From: a virus
IMG/VR virus record: IMGVR_UViG_3300034418_012856
Coordinates: 1-64,000 of that record
Strand: one strand, 5' to 3'
DNA length: 64,000 nt
The translations under genes were made by a program, and so were the position numbers. Below, in pieces: positions 14,064-20,486 of the stretch. The notes beneath the pieces were generated by a model. That model did no database searches, was not told where the DNA came from, and worked only from the letters and a program-made list of their open reading frames with translations. Position 1 is the first letter of the stretch, and every line of letters begins with the position of its first letter.

Positions 14064-14618
14064 ATGGCTGGCTTACCACATTATCAAAACTCAATAAACT
14101 CGGTAAACAAATTTGAGCCGGTTTATCTCAATCAGTTTGAGGTAAATGTGATTCCCCCAGCTGCAGTAGCTGGTGGTCCTGTTTTGCTTGAGCATGTTAT
14201 TTCAGTAGATGGTTTAGAGGTTGATAAGAATCCAAGTTTTGTTTCTCAGAAGTATAAATTCGCCAAAAGAAACTATGCTGGTGGTAAGCCAGATACTACT
14301 ACTCTTGATCTGGGGCTTAAATTTACAGTTAACCTGGATGATGCTAATTCCATGTATGTTTTTAAGACACTTAGACAGTGGACAGACCTTATTTATAATC
14401 CTTTGACTGGAGCTCAAGGTATTAAAGCTGATTATACTGGAACTATAGTAGTCTCTGTTTTCAATAAAAATGGAGATGTATTTAGAAGAATTACACTTAA
14501 GGATTGCTTCCCACTCAAAGCGATAGATCCAATGGAACTAGAATATGTAAACGGGAATACCCTTTATGAAATTAGCATGACTTGGGCGGTTGATTATTGG
14601 GACGATCTTTTCTTATAA
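14064..14618 (+). CDS. gp19: Tail tube protein, first copy (gp19-like)
   Basis: 184 aa, the size of T4 gp19 (163) plus a little. It starts MAGLPHYQNSINSV and has the tube features RNYAGGKPDTTTLDLGLKFT, DDANSMYVFKTLRQWTDLIY and GDVFRRITLKDCFP. It polymerises into the rigid inner tube. It is a clear paralogue of the next gene (shared NPLTGA, SVFNK.GDVFRRITL, DYW.DLFL). Confidence 0.92.
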   Translation: MAGLPHYQNSINSVNKFEPVYLNQFEVNVIPPAAVAGGPVLLEHVISVDGLEVDKNPSFVSQKYKFAKRNYAGGKPDTTTLDLGLKFTVNLDDANSMYVFKTLRQWTDLIYNPLTGAQGIKADYTGTIVVSVFNKNGDVFRRITLKDCFPLKAIDPMELEYVNGNTLYEISMTWAVDYWDDLFL

Positions 14619-14633
14619 AATAAAAAAAAGTAG

Positions 14634-15212
14634 ATGGCAGGTTTACCACATTTTAATAATTCAAAGGCAGCGAGAAATAATTATGAGCCGGTTTTCTTAA
14701 ACCAGTTTGAGGTTATTATTACCCCGCCTAATGGTATTAATCTATCAAATACTACATTCAGAGGCGAGACAATATTAACTCAGCAGGTAAAGAGTATTTC
14801 AGCATTACAAGTTGATATACAACCCTCTGATGCTGTTACACAATATTACAAGTTTGCTGAAAGAAGATATGCTGGAGGCGAGCCATCAACATCGGATGTT
14901 CAGTTCACTATGGATTTTGAAGTGAATCTTGACGATAATAATTCGATGACACTTTATAAGATATTGAGACAATGGTCTGATCTTATTTACAACCCTCTTA
15001 CAGGAGCAATGGGTTTAAAGAGGGATTATGTTGGATCTATGGTAGTCTCGGTTTTTAATAAGCAAGGTGACGTTTTCAGAAGGATAACCTTAAATAATTG
15101 TTTCTTGGTTGAGCCAATTACACCGATGACATTGTCTTACGATACTGGTGATGCACTTTATACAATTTCCACTACTTGGAAGTCAGATTACTGGAACGAC
15201 CTGTTCTTGTAA
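14634..15212 (+). CDS. Tail tube protein, second copy (gp19-like)
   Basis: 192 aa, paralogous to the gene just upstream along its whole length, with an 8-residue-longer loop near residues 35-45 (INLSNTTFRG). Shared signatures are RRYAGGEPSTSDVQFTMDF, LRQWSDLIYNPLTGA and GDVFRRITLNNCF. The copies are far from identical, so the duplication is old and both are kept. One may form the main tube and the other a tube end or a baseplate-proximal ring (as T4 gp48/54 relate to gp19); this is inference. Confidence 0.9.
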   Translation: MAGLPHFNNSKAARNNYEPVFLNQFEVIITPPNGINLSNTTFRGETILTQQVKSISALQVDIQPSDAVTQYYKFAERRYAGGEPSTSDVQFTMDFEVNLDDNNSMTLYKILRQWSDLIYNPLTGAMGLKRDYVGSMVVSVFNKQGDVFRRITLNNCFLVEPITPMTLSYDTGDALYTISTTWKSDYWNDLFL

Positions 15213-15278: not shown

Positions 15279-16316
15279 ATGACAAATATGTCTGATAAAA
15301 ATCTATCTCCTGAAGAAATCCTAAGAGAAAAAGAAATCTCCGGCGGAATAGTTTATGATGACCCCAATGGTCTAAATCTTGATACTGAGCTTTCCGGCAA
15401 TGTTTATAGTAAGGAATCTTCCCCGAAAACTAATGATTTACCCTCTGAACCTTTGGTTCAGGAAAGTGAGACTAGACCACTAGATCTTGGCTGGAAGAAT
15501 TTACCTATTGGTATGCTACCATCACAGGGACTTTTCTATCCTGAGAGTTCAAGGATAGCTATTAGACCTGCTGAGGTGAAGGAGATACGTCAATTTTCTA
15601 CTATTGATGAGGATGATATGCTTGACATAGACGATAAGCTAAATTATATTCTTGATTCTTGCTGCCGTATAAAATTTGATGAAAGTGGTGTAGTTTCCTA
15701 TAAGGATCTAAAACAAGAGGATAGATTTTTTATAATCATGGCTATTCGTGATTTAACATTTGTCCAGGGTGAAAATAGAATAATTGTAAACCCTGAAGGT
15801 GGGTGTACGACCAAGGGGTGTAATGGAATGGAAGGTATTGAGCTTAGAACAGGGGTTTTAAGCAACTATGATATAAATGAGGACCTAAAGAAGTTCTATT
15901 CGCATAGCGAGAGATGTTTTGTTTTCCCTATTAGAAGAATAGGGAAAACCATTAAGATGATACCACCATCCATTGGTGTTACAAAAGCAATATCCTCATT
16001 TGTAAGAGATGCTGTTAAAAGAGGAGACGAGGTTGACGAGAGTTTTATAAAAATTGCTCCTTTTTATTTAAGCGAGTGGCGGGGTTTGGATTATTTCAAG
16101 ATCAAGGAAGCCATGGTTTCTTCTTCTGAAGAATGGACTAAGGAGGAGTTTTCAGCTTATTTTGAATTAGCCGAAAGAATAAAAATTGGTACTGATCTTA
16201 AAATAAGAGTTAAATGTGACTCGTGCGGTGATGGGGAGGTCACCGCCCCAATTTACTTTCCCTCCGGGTTCAGATCTCTTTTCGTTATTTCAGATATCTT
16301 TAGAGAATTATTTTGA
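15279..16316 (+). CDS. Putative baseplate-hub or tail-assembly protein with Cys pairs
   Basis: 345 aa (342 if it starts at the second ATG, 15288). An N-terminal variable region precedes LGWKNLPIGMLPSQGLFYPE, which is like the opening of T4-type baseplate hub proteins (gp26/gp51 group), then a helical domain. Cys 176 and 181 (GGCTTKGCNG) and Cys 313 and 316 (KCDSCG) could bind zinc. The stop TTT TGA lies inside an overlapping +1 frame whose sequence becomes protein-like exactly there, so a frameshifted long form is possible. The location between tube and tape-measure-like genes fits a tail chaperone or hub role. The family assignment is tentative. Confidence 0.6.
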   Translation: MTNMSDKNLSPEEILREKEISGGIVYDDPNGLNLDTELSGNVYSKESSPKTNDLPSEPLVQESETRPLDLGWKNLPIGMLPSQGLFYPESSRIAIRPAEVKEIRQFSTIDEDDMLDIDDKLNYILDSCCRIKFDESGVVSYKDLKQEDRFFIIMAIRDLTFVQGENRIIVNPEGGCTTKGCNGMEGIELRTGVLSNYDINEDLKKFYSHSERCFVFPIRRIGKTIKMIPPSIGVTKAISSFVRDAVKRGDEVDESFIKIAPFYLSEWRGLDYFKIKEAMVSSSEEWTKEEFSAYFELAERIKIGTDLKIRVKCDSCGDGEVTAPIYFPSGFRSLFVISDIFRELF

Positions 16317-16491
16317 TCTCAAATTTAGGCTCTGGAAAGAGCATGGACTAGATCCTTCCTGGGTAGAATCTATACCATTCTACGAATATCAAATTTGGAT
16401 TGATAAGTTGAATGATGCTGTAGAAAGGGAGAATAAGAAAAAACTTGAGGAGAGCGGACAAACTGAGGTGTTTAGCTTTGGTAATAAGTGA
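16216..16491 (+). CDS. Overlapping +1-frame ORF, possible frameshift extension of the upstream hub-like gene
   Basis: 91 aa if read from its own ATG. Its first 28 residues overlap the Cys-rich end of the upstream gene and look like off-frame sequence. From LENYFDLKFRLWKEHGL onward it reads like a genuine helical protein, with ESIPFYEYQIWIDKLND and a charged tail. The upstream frame stops at TTT TGA (16311-16316), and a +1 slip on TTT would join the two as ELF-DLKFRLW. Tail-assembly chaperones commonly use frameshifting, though usually -1. Independent initiation at 16216, 16228 or 16231 is the alternative. Confidence 0.55.
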   Translation: MTRAVMGRSPPQFTFPPGSDLFSLFQISLENYFDLKFRLWKEHGLDPSWVESIPFYEYQIWIDKLNDAVERENKKKLEESGQTEVFSFGNK

Positions 16492-16535: not shown

Positions 16536-17930
16536 GTGGCTGACTCCAATAAACTTCTCAAAGAACTAAGTAGCCTGAGTAGCAACTTTGATTCACTGTA
16601 CCAGGAACTAAAAGCTTCTGCTAAATCTAACGCTGAGTCATCAGAACAGGTTAAAGACTTGGTGACTGAGATGAAGAAGGGCAAATCCCCTTCGGGGGAA
16701 GATTTGAAAGGCATTTTTGAAAGCTTTACAAAATCCTTTTCGAAAACAATTGCAGATCAGAATGATCAAATACTTAAAGGTTTAACTGATAAAATCTCTC
16801 AATCTTTTACAGGTTCGGTTTCAAACTTTCTCGGGAATGTACCACAGCAAATAGCTCAAGTTAAATCTGGTCAGATGCCGGATTTCAAATCTATTTTAGG
16901 TGGTGATTCCATAAAGGGTATAATATCAAATGCAGCTTCAAAAATTCCAGGATTAGCTGACGGCGGTACTGTTGAAAGCAGTGGTATAGCTGTAGTTGGT
17001 GAGAAAGGTCCAGAACTTGTTGAGCTAAAGTCTGGAGACAAGGTTAGAACTAAAGAGGAGCAACTAATGGAGATGCTACTTGACGAAGAAAGGAGAAAAA
17101 ACGAAAAGCTAGGACGTGTAAGAAGGACTGGACCAACCGAGGAAGAGGTTGAAGCTTACAGAAAAGAACTATTGGCTGAAGATCCTGAATTTTATTCAGA
17201 TCCTGCAGAATTACAGGAGGAACTTGATTACTTTAGATCTGAACAAGGATATGATCTTGAAACCAGAGAGACATTTAGCCTTGAGGATCTTAATAAACTC
17301 AGCCGACCAGTTTCATCATCTGAGGTTTCCAGTACTACAGAGACATTTAGCCTTGAGGATCTTAATAAACTCAGCCGACCAGTTTCACCGTCTGAGGTTT
17401 CCAGTACTACAACCACTGTGAGTGATTCCCAGGAATTAAATAAATCTATAAATGTAAATTCTCCAGATAAGGTAGGATCCCCCGAGGAGAAAAATTCTAA
17501 ATTTAAAGACTTGCTAGGTAAAGCTAAAGAGATGGCTACTGAAAAGCTTAAAGAGGCACAAACAAAAGCTACCTCTACTATTTCTAACAGTGTTGCTGAG
17601 TTAAAAGAAAAGAGTCCTATCGTGCAGGCTAAAAATTCCGCTGAAGATATAAAAGCTCAAGTGGAAGAAAAAGTAGCATCAATTAGAGAGTCCCTAGGTA
17701 AGTCTTCAAATACCTCTGAGACACAATCTTCTAACACTCCGAGTACTCAAGTATCCTCAAGGAGAACGAATCTATCTACAGCGTCTAGTTCAGATTCTAA
17801 TGTTGGTTCAATGTCTTCTGAAGATGTCAAAGAAATGAAATCGCTTCTTGCAGCCATATATCAAACCTTAAGAGGTCCGTTGACGATTGCAAACGATTTA
17901 CCTTTTAGACCTAACTCAAACAATTTCTAA
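16536..17930 (+). CDS. Tape-measure-like coiled-coil tail protein
   Basis: 464 aa from a GTG start placed 30 bases after a late-type box; no ATG in the frame fits better. Residues about 140-185 contain GLADGGTVESSG then GIAVVGEKGPELVELKSGDK, the ADGG...VGExGPE motif common near the ends of tape-measure proteins. The rest is charged helix and Ser/Thr-rich linker. Two nearly identical 24-residue units (ETFSLEDLNKLSRPVS...) lie at residues about 245-292. It is short for a tape measure of a T4-like tail, so it may be a second tail protein carrying that motif. Confidence 0.6.
   Translation: MADSNKLLKELSSLSSNFDSLYQELKASAKSNAESSEQVKDLVTEMKKGKSPSGEDLKGIFESFTKSFSKTIADQNDQILKGLTDKISQSFTGSVSNFLGNVPQQIAQVKSGQMPDFKSILGGDSIKGIISNAASKIPGLADGGTVESSGIAVVGEKGPELVELKSGDKVRTKEEQLMEMLLDEERRKNEKLGRVRRTGPTEEEVEAYRKELLAEDPEFYSDPAELQEELDYFRSEQGYDLETRETFSLEDLNKLSRPVSSSEVSSTTETFSLEDLNKLSRPVSPSEVSSTTTTVSDSQELNKSINVNSPDKVGSPEEKNSKFKDLLGKAKEMATEKLKEAQTKATSTISNSVAELKEKSPIVQAKNSAEDIKAQVEEKVASIRESLGKSSNTSETQSSNTPSTQVSSRRTNLSTASSSDSNVGSMSSEDVKEMKSLLAAIYQTLRGPLTIANDLPFRPNSNNF
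16686..16699 (+). other. UUCG-tetraloop hairpin inside a coding region
   Basis: TCCCC-TTCG-GGGGA is a perfect 5-bp GC-rich stem with a UUCG tetraloop, in otherwise AT-rich coding DNA about 150 bases after the GTG start. Such loops are very stable in RNA. The function is unknown. Confidence 0.5.
17268..17411 (+). repeat. 72-bp tandem duplication in the tape-measure-like gene
   Basis: Two adjacent 72-bp copies (17268-17339 and 17340-17411), differing only around TCATCATCT versus TCACCGTCT. The period is a multiple of three, so the frame is kept and 24 residues are duplicated. The near-identity indicates a recent duplication. Confidence 0.9.
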
Positions 17931-18013: not shown

Positions 18014-18574
18014 ATGGAAGAAACTTTTATTGGTTCTGAAATATTCTTTTCCCAGGAATATTCAGCACAGGGGAATTACTGGATAGCTAGTCCCTCCCTT
18101 GGTAAAGTAATAACCTCAAAAAACAATTTTGATGAAATAAGCGAAACCTTTTATTCTTTGAAGGATAGGAAGATGGACAGGGTCTATCTAGAAATGGCAA
18201 AGGTGTGGGCAACAAATTCTTACTGTGAGCGAATGAAGGTAGGTAGCTTGATAGTTAAGGATAAGTCAATCATCTCAGATGGGTATAATGGATCTCCGAC
18301 AGGATTTCCAAACATTTGTGAAGATGCTTCTCACGTTACACTTCCCCACGTTTTACATGCGGAAGCTAATGCAATTACTAAATTGGCCAAGAGCACTCAA
18401 AGCTCTGATGGAGCTACACTTTATGTTACTGTGTCTCCGTGTTTTGAATGCTCTAAATTGATCATCCAGAGTGGGATAAAAAGATTAGTGTTCAAGGAGT
18501 TATATAGAAAACTTGAATCTCTCAAGTTTTTGTTTGACGCTGGAATTGAGCTTGTTAGATTAAATAATAAATAA
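18014..18574 (+). CDS. dCMP deaminase
   Basis: 186 aa. Zinc and catalytic motifs are clear: HAEAN (His115, Glu117) and SPCFEC (Cys143, Cys146), with SDGYNGSPTGFPN before them. It converts dCMP to dUMP for dTTP synthesis. The usual family start aligns near residue 53 (MDRVYLEMAKVWA), so this form has an N-terminal extension of about 50 residues; an internal start at 18170 is the alternative. It is followed by a sigma factor gene. Confidence 0.9.
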   Translation: MEETFIGSEIFFSQEYSAQGNYWIASPSLGKVITSKNNFDEISETFYSLKDRKMDRVYLEMAKVWATNSYCERMKVGSLIVKDKSIISDGYNGSPTGFPNICEDASHVTLPHVLHAEANAITKLAKSTQSSDGATLYVTVSPCFECSKLIIQSGIKRLVFKELYRKLESLKFLFDAGIELVRLNNK

Positions 18575-18608: not shown

Positions 18609-19226
18609 ATGGCAAAAGAAAAAAATATACAGGTTCTGGCTGAGAGTTTCATCCAGACCAGAGGCGAGAGGGAATTTAAACCTCTCTATGAAAGAGTAAA
18701 GCCAGGTGTCTTAAATCACTGTTTTGGCATTCTTAAGGACTTTGAATTAGCTGAGGATGCATTTTTAAATGCAATGTCGAAAGTTTGGCAAAAGATAGAT
18801 CAATACGATAGCGAAAGAGGTAACTTTTCTACTTGGTGTTATAACATTGCTAGGAACGAATCCCTTCTTTTACTGAAAAGCAGAAAAAGATACATTTCAC
18901 AGACTTCCGAAGAGATGGAATATACCTCAGCAAAGCATGAGGAAAAAAATCCATCCTATGATATTGAGGAAGATCCCCTATGGGATTTCTTATGTGGTGG
19001 TAACGATATTGATGACGTTTATGAACAGGTTATCGATGAGATTAAGGAACTTCCAGACATCTACAGGGATATAATGATTGATCGCGAGATTAATGGGATG
19101 AAATACAAAGATATCGCGGACAAGTACAATATTAAAAAGAGATCCATTGCTACCAGAATACGTAGGGCCAGAACCAAAATTCGTAAGAAAATGGAAGATG
19201 CAATGGGAAAATCTGATTTCAAGTAA
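18609..19226 (+). CDS. ECF-like sigma-70 family factor
   Basis: 205 aa. Region 2 is seen in FELAEDAFLNAMSKVWQKID then GNFSTWCYNIARNESLLL (core-binding and -10 contacts). Region 4 is a helix-turn-helix in MKYKDIADKYNIKKRSIATRI followed by RRARTKIRKKM. This is the layout of extracytoplasmic-function sigma factors. It differs from the gp55 homologue at 26534, so the phage appears to encode two specificity factors. It probably redirects host RNA polymerase to a phage promoter class; which class is unknown. Confidence 0.85.
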   Translation: MAKEKNIQVLAESFIQTRGEREFKPLYERVKPGVLNHCFGILKDFELAEDAFLNAMSKVWQKIDQYDSERGNFSTWCYNIARNESLLLLKSRKRYISQTSEEMEYTSAKHEEKNPSYDIEEDPLWDFLCGGNDIDDVYEQVIDEIKELPDIYRDIMIDREINGMKYKDIADKYNIKKRSIATRIRRARTKIRKKMEDAMGKSDFK

Positions 19227-19687
19227 TGTGGAATATATTAGCAATATTTAGAATTTTCAAGGTTCTTAAGGAACTGAGAATTTATTCGCAGTATAGATCT
19301 ACTGTGAAGGAGGAGAGCATGAATTCTCCCTTTTGGACAAGGCTTAGACTTAGGTACGATTGGCTTAGGAGAATTTACACTGTGATTAATCTACCACCAG
19401 AGGTTACAATGTCTCGAGAGTTTCCTGTGGATGCTAGGCCTGCATATGTTTTTGAAGAACTTAAGGGTGTAAATGATTACCTCACCAAGCTGAATCTCCA
19501 GGAGATAATTACCCCTGTGTTAAAGCCTCTCCCAGAAACAAACGGAGATTCTTATTTAGTAGTATATTATTTCTTTTTCCGTTATCTTTCTTGGATATGG
19601 ATATTTAGGTTTTTGTTAGAAATTACTGGAATTGTATTTTTGATATTGAAGTGGAATTTTTTGATAAGTTATTTTGGATTTGGATAA
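19226..19687 (+). CDS. Membrane protein of unknown function
   Basis: 153 aa. Basic N-terminal helix, soluble middle and a strongly hydrophobic C-terminus (YLVVYYFFFRYLSWIWIF, then LLEITGIVFLILKW) that would form one hairpin or two membrane segments. It starts one base into the sigma factor stop (TAATG) and overlaps the nuclease gene by 14 bases. No family recognised. Confidence 0.7.
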   Translation: MWNILAIFRIFKVLKELRIYSQYRSTVKEESMNSPFWTRLRLRYDWLRRIYTVINLPPEVTMSREFPVDARPAYVFEELKGVNDYLTKLNLQEIITPVLKPLPETNGDSYLVVYYFFFRYLSWIWIFRFLLEITGIVFLILKWNFLISYFGFG

Positions 19688-20486
19688 TATAGGAAAAGTA
19701 AAGGAAGATTACCAGAGAAAGCTAGACATATTCAAGGATCCCAAGTTTATATTTAACGAGTCGGCTCACACGTACCATTTTGAGGGGATCAAATACGATT
19801 CGGTAACCACATTTCTTAAAAGATTTAAAGTCCCTTTCGACAGGGAATATTGGGCAAATAGAAAAGCTCAGGAAAGAGGTGTCGATGTTTCTGTTGTAAA
19901 GGAAGAATGGCAACAAAAGGCAAATGTTGCTAATGTTTTAGGTACAGCGGTCCATAAATGGATAGAGGATTATTGGACTGGATTAAATCCGGAAACACCG
20001 GAAGACCCTGAAGTCAGAAGTAGGGTAGAAAAATTTTTAGCATTGAAGGATGAAAGGTTCCGGGATCTTGTTCCCTTAGAATCTGAGCTTAAGGTTTTTT
20101 CTAAAAAGTGGAGATTAGCTGGAACCGTGGATCAACCCTTTCTTATGTGGGACAAGAAAGAAAATAAGCTTTTGTTCCTCATCGGTGATTGGAAGACCAA
20201 TAAGGAATTTAAGGACGATAAGCATCCAAAGGGTAGATTCAAAAAACTTTTGCATCCTTTCGCGGATCTTTATGAGAATTCTCATAATGAATATTCCATA
20301 CAAATTAGCCTGTATAGGCTAATAATAGAGGAAGAAACTGGATTAGAAACCCATGGAGGTTTCCTTTGCCACATTGGACCTCAAGACAAACCTAAACTAT
20401 ATCCTGTAAAAGACTTACGAGAAAGACTTAAGATATATTTGCAACATAATCGGGAAGAATTCGATGTTTTCGATATCTCCGAGTGA
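19674..20486 (+). CDS. PD-(D/E)XK superfamily nuclease
   Basis: 270 aa. The RecB-like exonuclease pattern is visible: GTAVHKWIEDYW (motif I His/Glu), LESELKVFSKKWRLAGTVD (Glu and Asp) and LIGDWKTNKE (the D-x-K core), then the QISLYRLIIEEETG helix typical of RecB/Cas4-like nucleases. It probably acts as an exonuclease or single-strand nuclease in phage DNA processing. It overlaps the preceding membrane protein gene. Confidence 0.85.
   Translation: MDLDNIGKVKEDYQRKLDIFKDPKFIFNESAHTYHFEGIKYDSVTTFLKRFKVPFDREYWANRKAQERGVDVSVVKEEWQQKANVANVLGTAVHKWIEDYWTGLNPETPEDPEVRSRVEKFLALKDERFRDLVPLESELKVFSKKWRLAGTVDQPFLMWDKKENKLLFLIGDWKTNKEFKDDKHPKGRFKKLLHPFADLYENSHNEYSIQISLYRLIIEEETGLETHGGFLCHIGPQDKPKLYPVKDLRERLKIYLQHNREEFDVFDISE

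What the first reader, a model, noticed from the sequence alone, without database searches (positions are those of the whole stretch)
16301..16491. Possible +1 frameshift at UUU UGA in the hub/chaperone-like gene
The zero frame ends TTA TTT TGA. The +1 frame becomes protein-like at this very point (DLKFRLWKEHGLDPSW...) while its upstream part overlapping the first gene looks like noise. A +1 slip on UUU before UGA would fuse the two. The place between tube and tape-measure-like genes is where tail-assembly chaperones use frameshifting in other phages, though normally -1.
Basis: partly seen in the sequence, partly recalled or inferred. Interest (0 to 1): 0.6.

Follow-up and report, generated by a model that had tools for sequence, protein, structure and literature searches.

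The report
Hidden +1 frameshift in tail-chaperone gene

Summary
A programmed frameshift into the +1 frame is strongly supported, but not at UUU UGA (16311-16316). The zero-frame gene (15279-16316, 345 aa) is T4 gp26-like. The +1 ORF is the C-terminal part of a gp51-like protein, and its conservation starts well before UUU UGA (GSDLFSLFQISLENYF). In 85 unique homologous regions (166 loci) the one invariant slippery element is zero-frame UUU_C, nearly always UUU CCC (window 16257-16262), 19 codons before the stop. The codon before the stop is UUU in only 9 of 76. A +1-frame stop lies directly upstream of the slip site in 23 of 85, and 26 of 85 have no ATG/GTG/TTG in the +1 frame before the conserved motif. 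In the overlap, wobble substitutions fall from 18.5 to 3.3 per site. The fused 403-aa product is colinear with the -1-fused cyanophage gp26/gp51 and, through it, with single-ORF T4 gp51. Published work already names T4 gp26/gp51 as the short and long tail-assembly chaperones. So this is a new variant: +1 at UUU_C in SD-less (Bacteroidota-type) giant myophages, Lak included, against -1 at U_UUU_UUN in cyanophages and two paralogous genes in T4. A frozen GGAGGUC 16 nt upstream is unexplained. No expression data exist.

The parts
15279..16316 (+). Zero-frame gene, T4 gp26-like short tail-assembly chaperone (TAC-N), 345 aa, stop TGA 16314-16316
   Evidence: phrog_150 baseplate hub E 8e-4, phrog_36717 E 2e-22; Foldseek to T4-like baseplate hub assembly proteins E down to 5e-8; hhalign to cyanophage gp26/51
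16257..16260 (+). Inferred +1 slip site UUU_C: peptidyl-tRNAPhe moves from UUU to UUC
   Evidence: TTTC in frame in 85/85 unique regions; TTT has 0 changes on the tree of 76
16260..16262 (+). A-site codon CCC, inferred slow codon (11% of Pro codons); the only in-frame TTT CCC among about 20,441 window codons
   Evidence: CCC 79/85, CCT 2, CAA/CGC/CGA 1 each; the one CTT counted is L231, which has TTT CCC at the standard place
16235..16241 (+). Shine-Dalgarno-like GGAGGTC, 16 nt between GAGGT and the slip codon; frozen at wobble positions; role unproven
   Evidence: GAGGT at exactly 16 nt in 76/85; GAG and GTC are the two most frozen of 34 conserved codon columns
16225..16246 (+). Possible hairpin GCGGTGA ... 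TCACCGC around the GGAGG; present in a subset only
   Evidence: stem of 6 bp or more in 46 of the loci scored; RNAalifold finds no consensus structure
16261..16488 (+). +1-frame C-terminal extension (TAC-C, gp51-like), 76 aa; long form = 327 + 76 = 403 aa; stop TGA 16489-16491
   Evidence: phrog_634 E 3e-4; extension vs cyanophage extension hhalign Prob 96, E 2e-9
16261..16316 (+). Dual-coded overlap (zero-frame tail of the short form and +1-frame start of the extension)
   Evidence: Substitution pattern by codon position
16536..17930 (+). Downstream tape-measure-like gene, the expected client of the chaperones
   Evidence: phrog_8892 tail length tape measure E 7e-6
14064..15212 (+). Upstream pair of related tail-tube genes (14064-14618 and 14634-15212)
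   Evidence: phrog_45 tail tube E 3e-8 for the second; the first is similar by eye

Best explanation
[quoted passage not shown] Most ribosomes read the zero frame to the TGA at 16314-16316 and make the short chaperone (gp26-like, TAC-N). A fraction slip +1 at UUU_C (16257-16260): peptidyl-tRNAPhe on UUU re-pairs with UUC while the CCC codon waits to be decoded, and translation continues with CCU CCG GGU UCA ... in the +1 frame, adding a 76-aa helical extension (TAC-C, gp51-like) to give a 403-aa long chaperone. Both forms would bind the tape-measure protein during tail or hub assembly. Shown here: overlap, frames, conservation, invariant slip site, homology of the fused product to T4 gp51 (through cyanophages). 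Inferred: that the slip happens, its direction and exact codon, its rate, and the chaperone role (by homology with T4 gp26/gp51).
For: (2) No usable start: 26/85 unique regions have no ATG/GTG/TTG in the +1 frame before SLFQ, only 13/85 have an ATG, and 23/85 have a +1 stop with one codon before TTC, so entry must be at or after that codon. (3) UUU_C is invariant, 85/85; it is the only codon in the allowed stretch that re-pairs perfectly in +1 in all sequences; Lak-A1/B5 also have TTT CAA there, with the +1 frame open for 150 codons when TAG is read as Q. (4) Zero-frame changes per site at codon positions 1/2/3: upstream 7.1/4.9/17.0, overlap 5.8/1.5/4.8; the downstream +1 frame is a normal 6.8/2.7/17.2. 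(5) W-type fused vs cyanophage -1-fused: hhalign 272 columns across the junction, Prob 97.6, E 3e-12; cyanophage fused vs single-ORF T4-type gp51: 240 columns end to end, Prob 99.5, E 1e-22. (6) Gene order tube - this gene - tape measure. (7) Independent -1 solution at the same gene in cyanophages, Vibrio, Rhizobium and Pseudomonas phages.
Against: No protein or ribosome data. No direct hhalign match of the W-type fusion to T4 gp51 alone (Prob 10); the link runs through cyanophages. The GGAGGUC at 16 nt is far from the 3-nt spacing that drives +1 shifting in prfB, so it does not fit simply. PTm1 and MA9V-1 do not show UUU_C at the same place. No natural in-frame fusion was found within the W-type group itself.
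Confidence: 0.85

Rival explanations
1. Programmed +1 frameshift exactly at UUU UGA (16311-16316), prfB-like.
For: UUU UGA / CUU UGA at the zero-frame end in most close relatives resembles the prfB slip.
Against: +1 frame is conserved 15 or more codons before it; wider relatives end CTT TAA or TTA TAA; UUA cannot re-pair in +1; TTT precedes the stop in only 9/76.
Confidence: 0.04
2. Separate small gp51-like gene initiated at its own start (GTG 16216, GTG 16228 or ATG 16231).
For: These codons exist in the window, and a GGAGGTC sits nearby.
Against: Starts absent in 26/85 unique regions; ATG in only 13/85; in 23/85 a +1 stop separates any upstream start from the conserved part. T4 gp51 and the cyanophage product are long fused proteins.
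Confidence: 0.05
3. -2 tandem slip at UCU CUU UUC (16274-16282), homologous to the cyanophage U_UUU_UUC site.
For: Perfect -2 re-pairing in the window and close relatives; -2 is known for phage Mu (PMC5009743).
Against: The site is not conserved: CTC, CTG, TTA, TTG, ATG, TTC replace CTT in the wider group, and the +1 frame is already constrained upstream of it (NTC and GCT/TCT wobble frozen).
Confidence: 0.05
4. +1 slip one codon later, tRNAPro from CCC to CCN.
For: CCC in 79/85; the peptide would be the same, so conservation hardly separates it.
Against: CAA, CGC, CGA and CCT replace CCC in relatives that keep UUU_C.
Confidence: 0.1

Closest known systems
T4 gp26 / gp51 (identified as T4-like tail-assembly chaperones by Vladimirov, Gautam & Davidson, Virology 2022, doi 10.1016/j.virol.2021.11.003; read only as cited in PMC10885494 and PMC12846349)
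   Same: Short form = gp26-like, long form = gp51-like; homologous across the junction via cyanophages
   Different: T4 uses two separate paralogous genes; here one gene with a frame change
Cyanophage (Kyanoviridae) gp26-gp51, also Vibrio ValKK3, Rhizobium RHph_I1_9, Pseudomonas pf16
   Same: Same gene, overlapping frames without a start codon, same fused product
   Different: -1 frame at U_UUU_UUN just before the gp26 stop (62/62 unique), not +1 at UUU_C
Lambda gpG/gpGT and P2-type tail-assembly chaperone frameshifts
   Same: Gene position, short and long form by a frameshift near the 3' end
   Different: No detected sequence relation; -1 at GGGAAAG in lambda
Bacterial prfB (RF2) +1 frameshift
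   Same: +1 shift by a P-site tRNA onto a U-starting codon; SD-like element upstream
   Different: prfB slips at CUU UGA with the SD 3 nt away; here a sense codon (CCC) follows and the spacing is 16 nt

Membership tests
Frameshifted tail-assembly chaperone genes (TAC-N/TAC-NC) | Gene between tail-tube and tape-measure genes | tested here: met
   phrog tail tube at 14634-15212, tape-measure phrogs at 16536-17930
Frameshifted tail-assembly chaperone genes (TAC-N/TAC-NC) | Second frame overlaps the 3' end and lacks its own conserved start | tested here: met
Frameshifted tail-assembly chaperone genes (TAC-N/TAC-NC) | Conserved slippery sequence | tested here: met
   UUU_C 85/85
Frameshifted tail-assembly chaperone genes (TAC-N/TAC-NC) | Both short and long proteins are made, in an unequal ratio | not testable with these tools
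   No proteomics or ribosome profiling of these uncultured phages
Frameshifted tail-assembly chaperone genes (TAC-N/TAC-NC) | Binding to the tape-measure protein | not testable with these tools
   Needs experiment
T4 gp26/gp51 family (PF12322, phrog_150, phrog_634) | Zero-frame protein homologous to gp26 | tested here: met
   Weak by single-sequence HMM (PF12322 E 0.07, phrog_150 E 8e-4); supported by Foldseek and profile comparison to cyanophages
T4 gp26/gp51 family (PF12322, phrog_150, phrog_634) | Extension homologous to the gp51 C-terminus | tested here: met
   phrog_634 E 3e-4; hhalign E 2e-9 to cyanophage extension; direct to T4 gp51 not significant
Canonical -1 heptamer frameshift (X_XXY_YYZ) | Second ORF in the -1 frame after a heptamer | tested here: not met
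   W-type is +1; -1 holds for cyanophage type only
prfB-type +1 frameshift at a stop codon | Slip at NUU UGA with SD 3 nt upstream | tested here: not met
   UUU UGA not conserved; SD-like element 16 nt upstream of a different codon

The most novel reading that the evidence does not exclude
A new class of +1 recoding signal: in phages of hosts whose ribosomes hardly use Shine-Dalgarno pairing, a frozen GGAGGUC placed 16 nt before UUU_C (with or without its hairpin) acts on the elongating ribosome to drive a +1 slip at a sense codon, and the same T4-type chaperone gene has switched between +1, -1 and gene duplication in evolution.
Probability: 0.3. Interest if true: 0.65.

Novelty: new variant of a known kind. 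Interest (0 to 1): 0.48.

Why it matters
It corrects the annotation of a tail gene in many marine and gut phages (database entries give gp51 as a very short protein from a false start, or miss it), gives a precise slip site to test, and shows that one essential protein pair is produced by three different routes (+1, -1, duplicated genes). It also offers a natural test of whether Shine-Dalgarno-like sequences act during elongation in Bacteroidota-type hosts, which barely use them for initiation.

Tried and rejected
Slip at UUU UGA (conservation starts upstream). -2 at CUUUUC (not conserved in L181-L266). Independent start codons. Reading both groups as one frame direction: cyanophages are -1, W-type +1. 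Conserved RNA structure by RNAalifold (none). PDB homologues by sequence and fold (none). Foldseek with the extension alone (no significant match). Vladimirov et al. 2022 is not held, so its list of frameshifted T4-like groups could not be read. tRNA scan of the window: none.

Full report
WHAT IS THERE. The window is part of an 83.8-kb virus record from a T4-like myophage: T4-type terminase, tail sheath, two tail-tube-like genes, then ORF 15279-16316, then a tape-measure-like ORF 16536-17930. Of 63 ORFs of 90 aa or more, 59 have no Shine-Dalgarno sequence at all before the first ATG. Together with relatives infecting Prevotella, Tenacibaculum, Chryseobacterium and Flavobacterium this points to a Bacteroidota-type host; that is an inference.

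WHAT THE TWO FRAMES ENCODE. The zero-frame product is a gp26-like baseplate-hub protein (phrog_150 E 8e-4). Its AlphaFold model (mean pLDDT 78, pTM 0.76) matches predicted T4-like baseplate hub assembly proteins (Foldseek E 5e-8 and weaker, and 1e-16 to 2e-25 for PAU/PTm1-type proteins). The +1 product matches phrog_634, 'baseplate hub assembly catalyst' (gp51), from residue 23 (SDLFSLFQ...), that is before UUU UGA.

WHERE THE SLIP MUST BE. Homologous regions were collected from 166 loci (named phages), 85 of them unique around the site. (a) In 23 of 85 a +1-frame stop (TTA ACG TTT CCC read +1 as TAA CGT TTC) leaves one codon before TTC, so entry into +1 cannot be earlier. (b) In 26 of 85 there is no ATG, GTG or TTG in the +1 frame before the conserved SLFQ motif. 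(c) Wobble changes of the zero frame are about 17-18 per site upstream and collapse from the fourth codon after TTT (NTC, 1; GCT/TCT, 1) to the end of the overlap: 3.3 per site, 0 of 100,000 permutations as low. First-position changes (silent in +1) then exceed third-position ones, ratio 1.8 against 0.40 upstream. So +1 is translated from about GSDLF on, and entry lies within TTT CCC NNN GGN. (d) In that stretch TTT C is invariant, 85 of 85, with no change of TTT on the tree of 76, while CCC is 79 of 85 and is replaced by CCT, CAA, CGC or CGA. (The one CTT in the tally is L231, where the script picked a later TTTC; it has TTT CCC at the standard place.) UUU_C is the only codon there that re-pairs perfectly in +1 in all sequences. 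Lak megaphages also have TTT CAA there, with a 150-codon open +1 frame reaching the gp51-like motif (TAG read as Q in Lak-B5).

WHAT THE FUSION IS. Fusing at UUU_C gives 327 + 76 = 403 aa. The profile of such fusions aligns with cyanophage gp26-gp51 fused by -1 over 272 columns across the junction (Prob 97.6, E 3e-12), and the cyanophage fusion aligns with single-ORF T4-type gp51 over 240 columns, end to end (Prob 99.5, E 1e-22). T4 gp26 and gp51 are themselves homologous (Prob 97), and T4-type gp51 is one continuous ORF in about 1,330 phage records. The W-type fusion does not match T4 gp51 directly, so that link is indirect. The extension is modelled as three helices (mean pLDDT 76.5).

THE -1 COUSINS. 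In 62 of 62 unique Kyanoviridae-like, Vibrio, Rhizobium and Pseudomonas regions, gp26 ends NNT TTT TTN followed by 0-3 codons and a stop, gp51 lies in the -1 frame, no start codon precedes the slip, and a GAGGG or GGAGG lies 9-10 nt upstream in 38. One further record, S-SCSM1, does not fit and is listed separately. The loci were drawn by searching with a cyanophage extension, and the heptamer was used to locate the site, so 62 of 62 describes the located regions. Annotated gp51 starts in these phages usually fall after the conserved start of the extension.

UNEXPLAINED. GGAGGTC is frozen at exactly 16 nt before TTT in 76 of 85 (GAGGT); its two codons GAG GTC are the most frozen of 34 conserved columns (0 and 1 wobble changes against a mean of 16). 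Bacteroidia keep SD-dependent +1 shifting in prfB (PMC8710568), but with 3-nt spacing. A hairpin around it exists in a subset only; no consensus structure was found.

KNOWN AND NEW. Frameshifted tail-assembly chaperones with -1, -2 or +1 are known (PMC5009743). T4-like TAC genes, with separate short and long genes in T4, were published by Vladimirov et al. 2022; I know this paper only through PRFect (PMC10885494), the phage Adele paper (PMC12846349) and my own recollection of its abstract, which says that frameshifting appears conserved in several T4-like groups. The group studied here may be among them. New here, as far as the open library shows: the +1 variant at UUU_C in this group and its contrast with the -1 site and the T4 duplication.

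Noticed in passing
window 17267-17411: Two 72-bp tandem copies (97% alike) inside the tape-measure-like gene, encoding ETFSLEDLNKLSRPVS... repeats.
   Followed up: no
window 14064-14618 and 14634-15212: Two adjacent related tail-tube-like genes.
   Followed up: no
window, 63 ORFs: Almost no gene has a Shine-Dalgarno sequence (59 none, 4 weak, 0 strong), as in Bacteroidota.
   Followed up: partly
L098 (S-SCSM1) near 1281-1300: One cyanophage record has the extension in the +1/-2 frame at TCT TTT TTC instead of -1; real switch or sequencing error.
   Followed up: partly
L088 (MA9V-1) near 1540-1560; L084 (PTm1) near 1450-1520: Chryseobacterium and Tenacibaculum phages have the +1 extension, but UUU_C lies at another place (MA9V-1 TTT CTA) or is unclear (PTm1).
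   Followed up: partly
L089 2236-2692, L090 2287-2737: Lak megaphages: +1 frame open from TTT CAA through a longer linker to the gp51-like domain; unannotated.
   Followed up: partly
window 18014-18574, 18609-19226, 19674-20486: Deoxycytidylate deaminase-like, sigma-70-like (possibly late sigma) and PD-(D/E)XK nuclease genes follow the tail genes.
   Followed up: no
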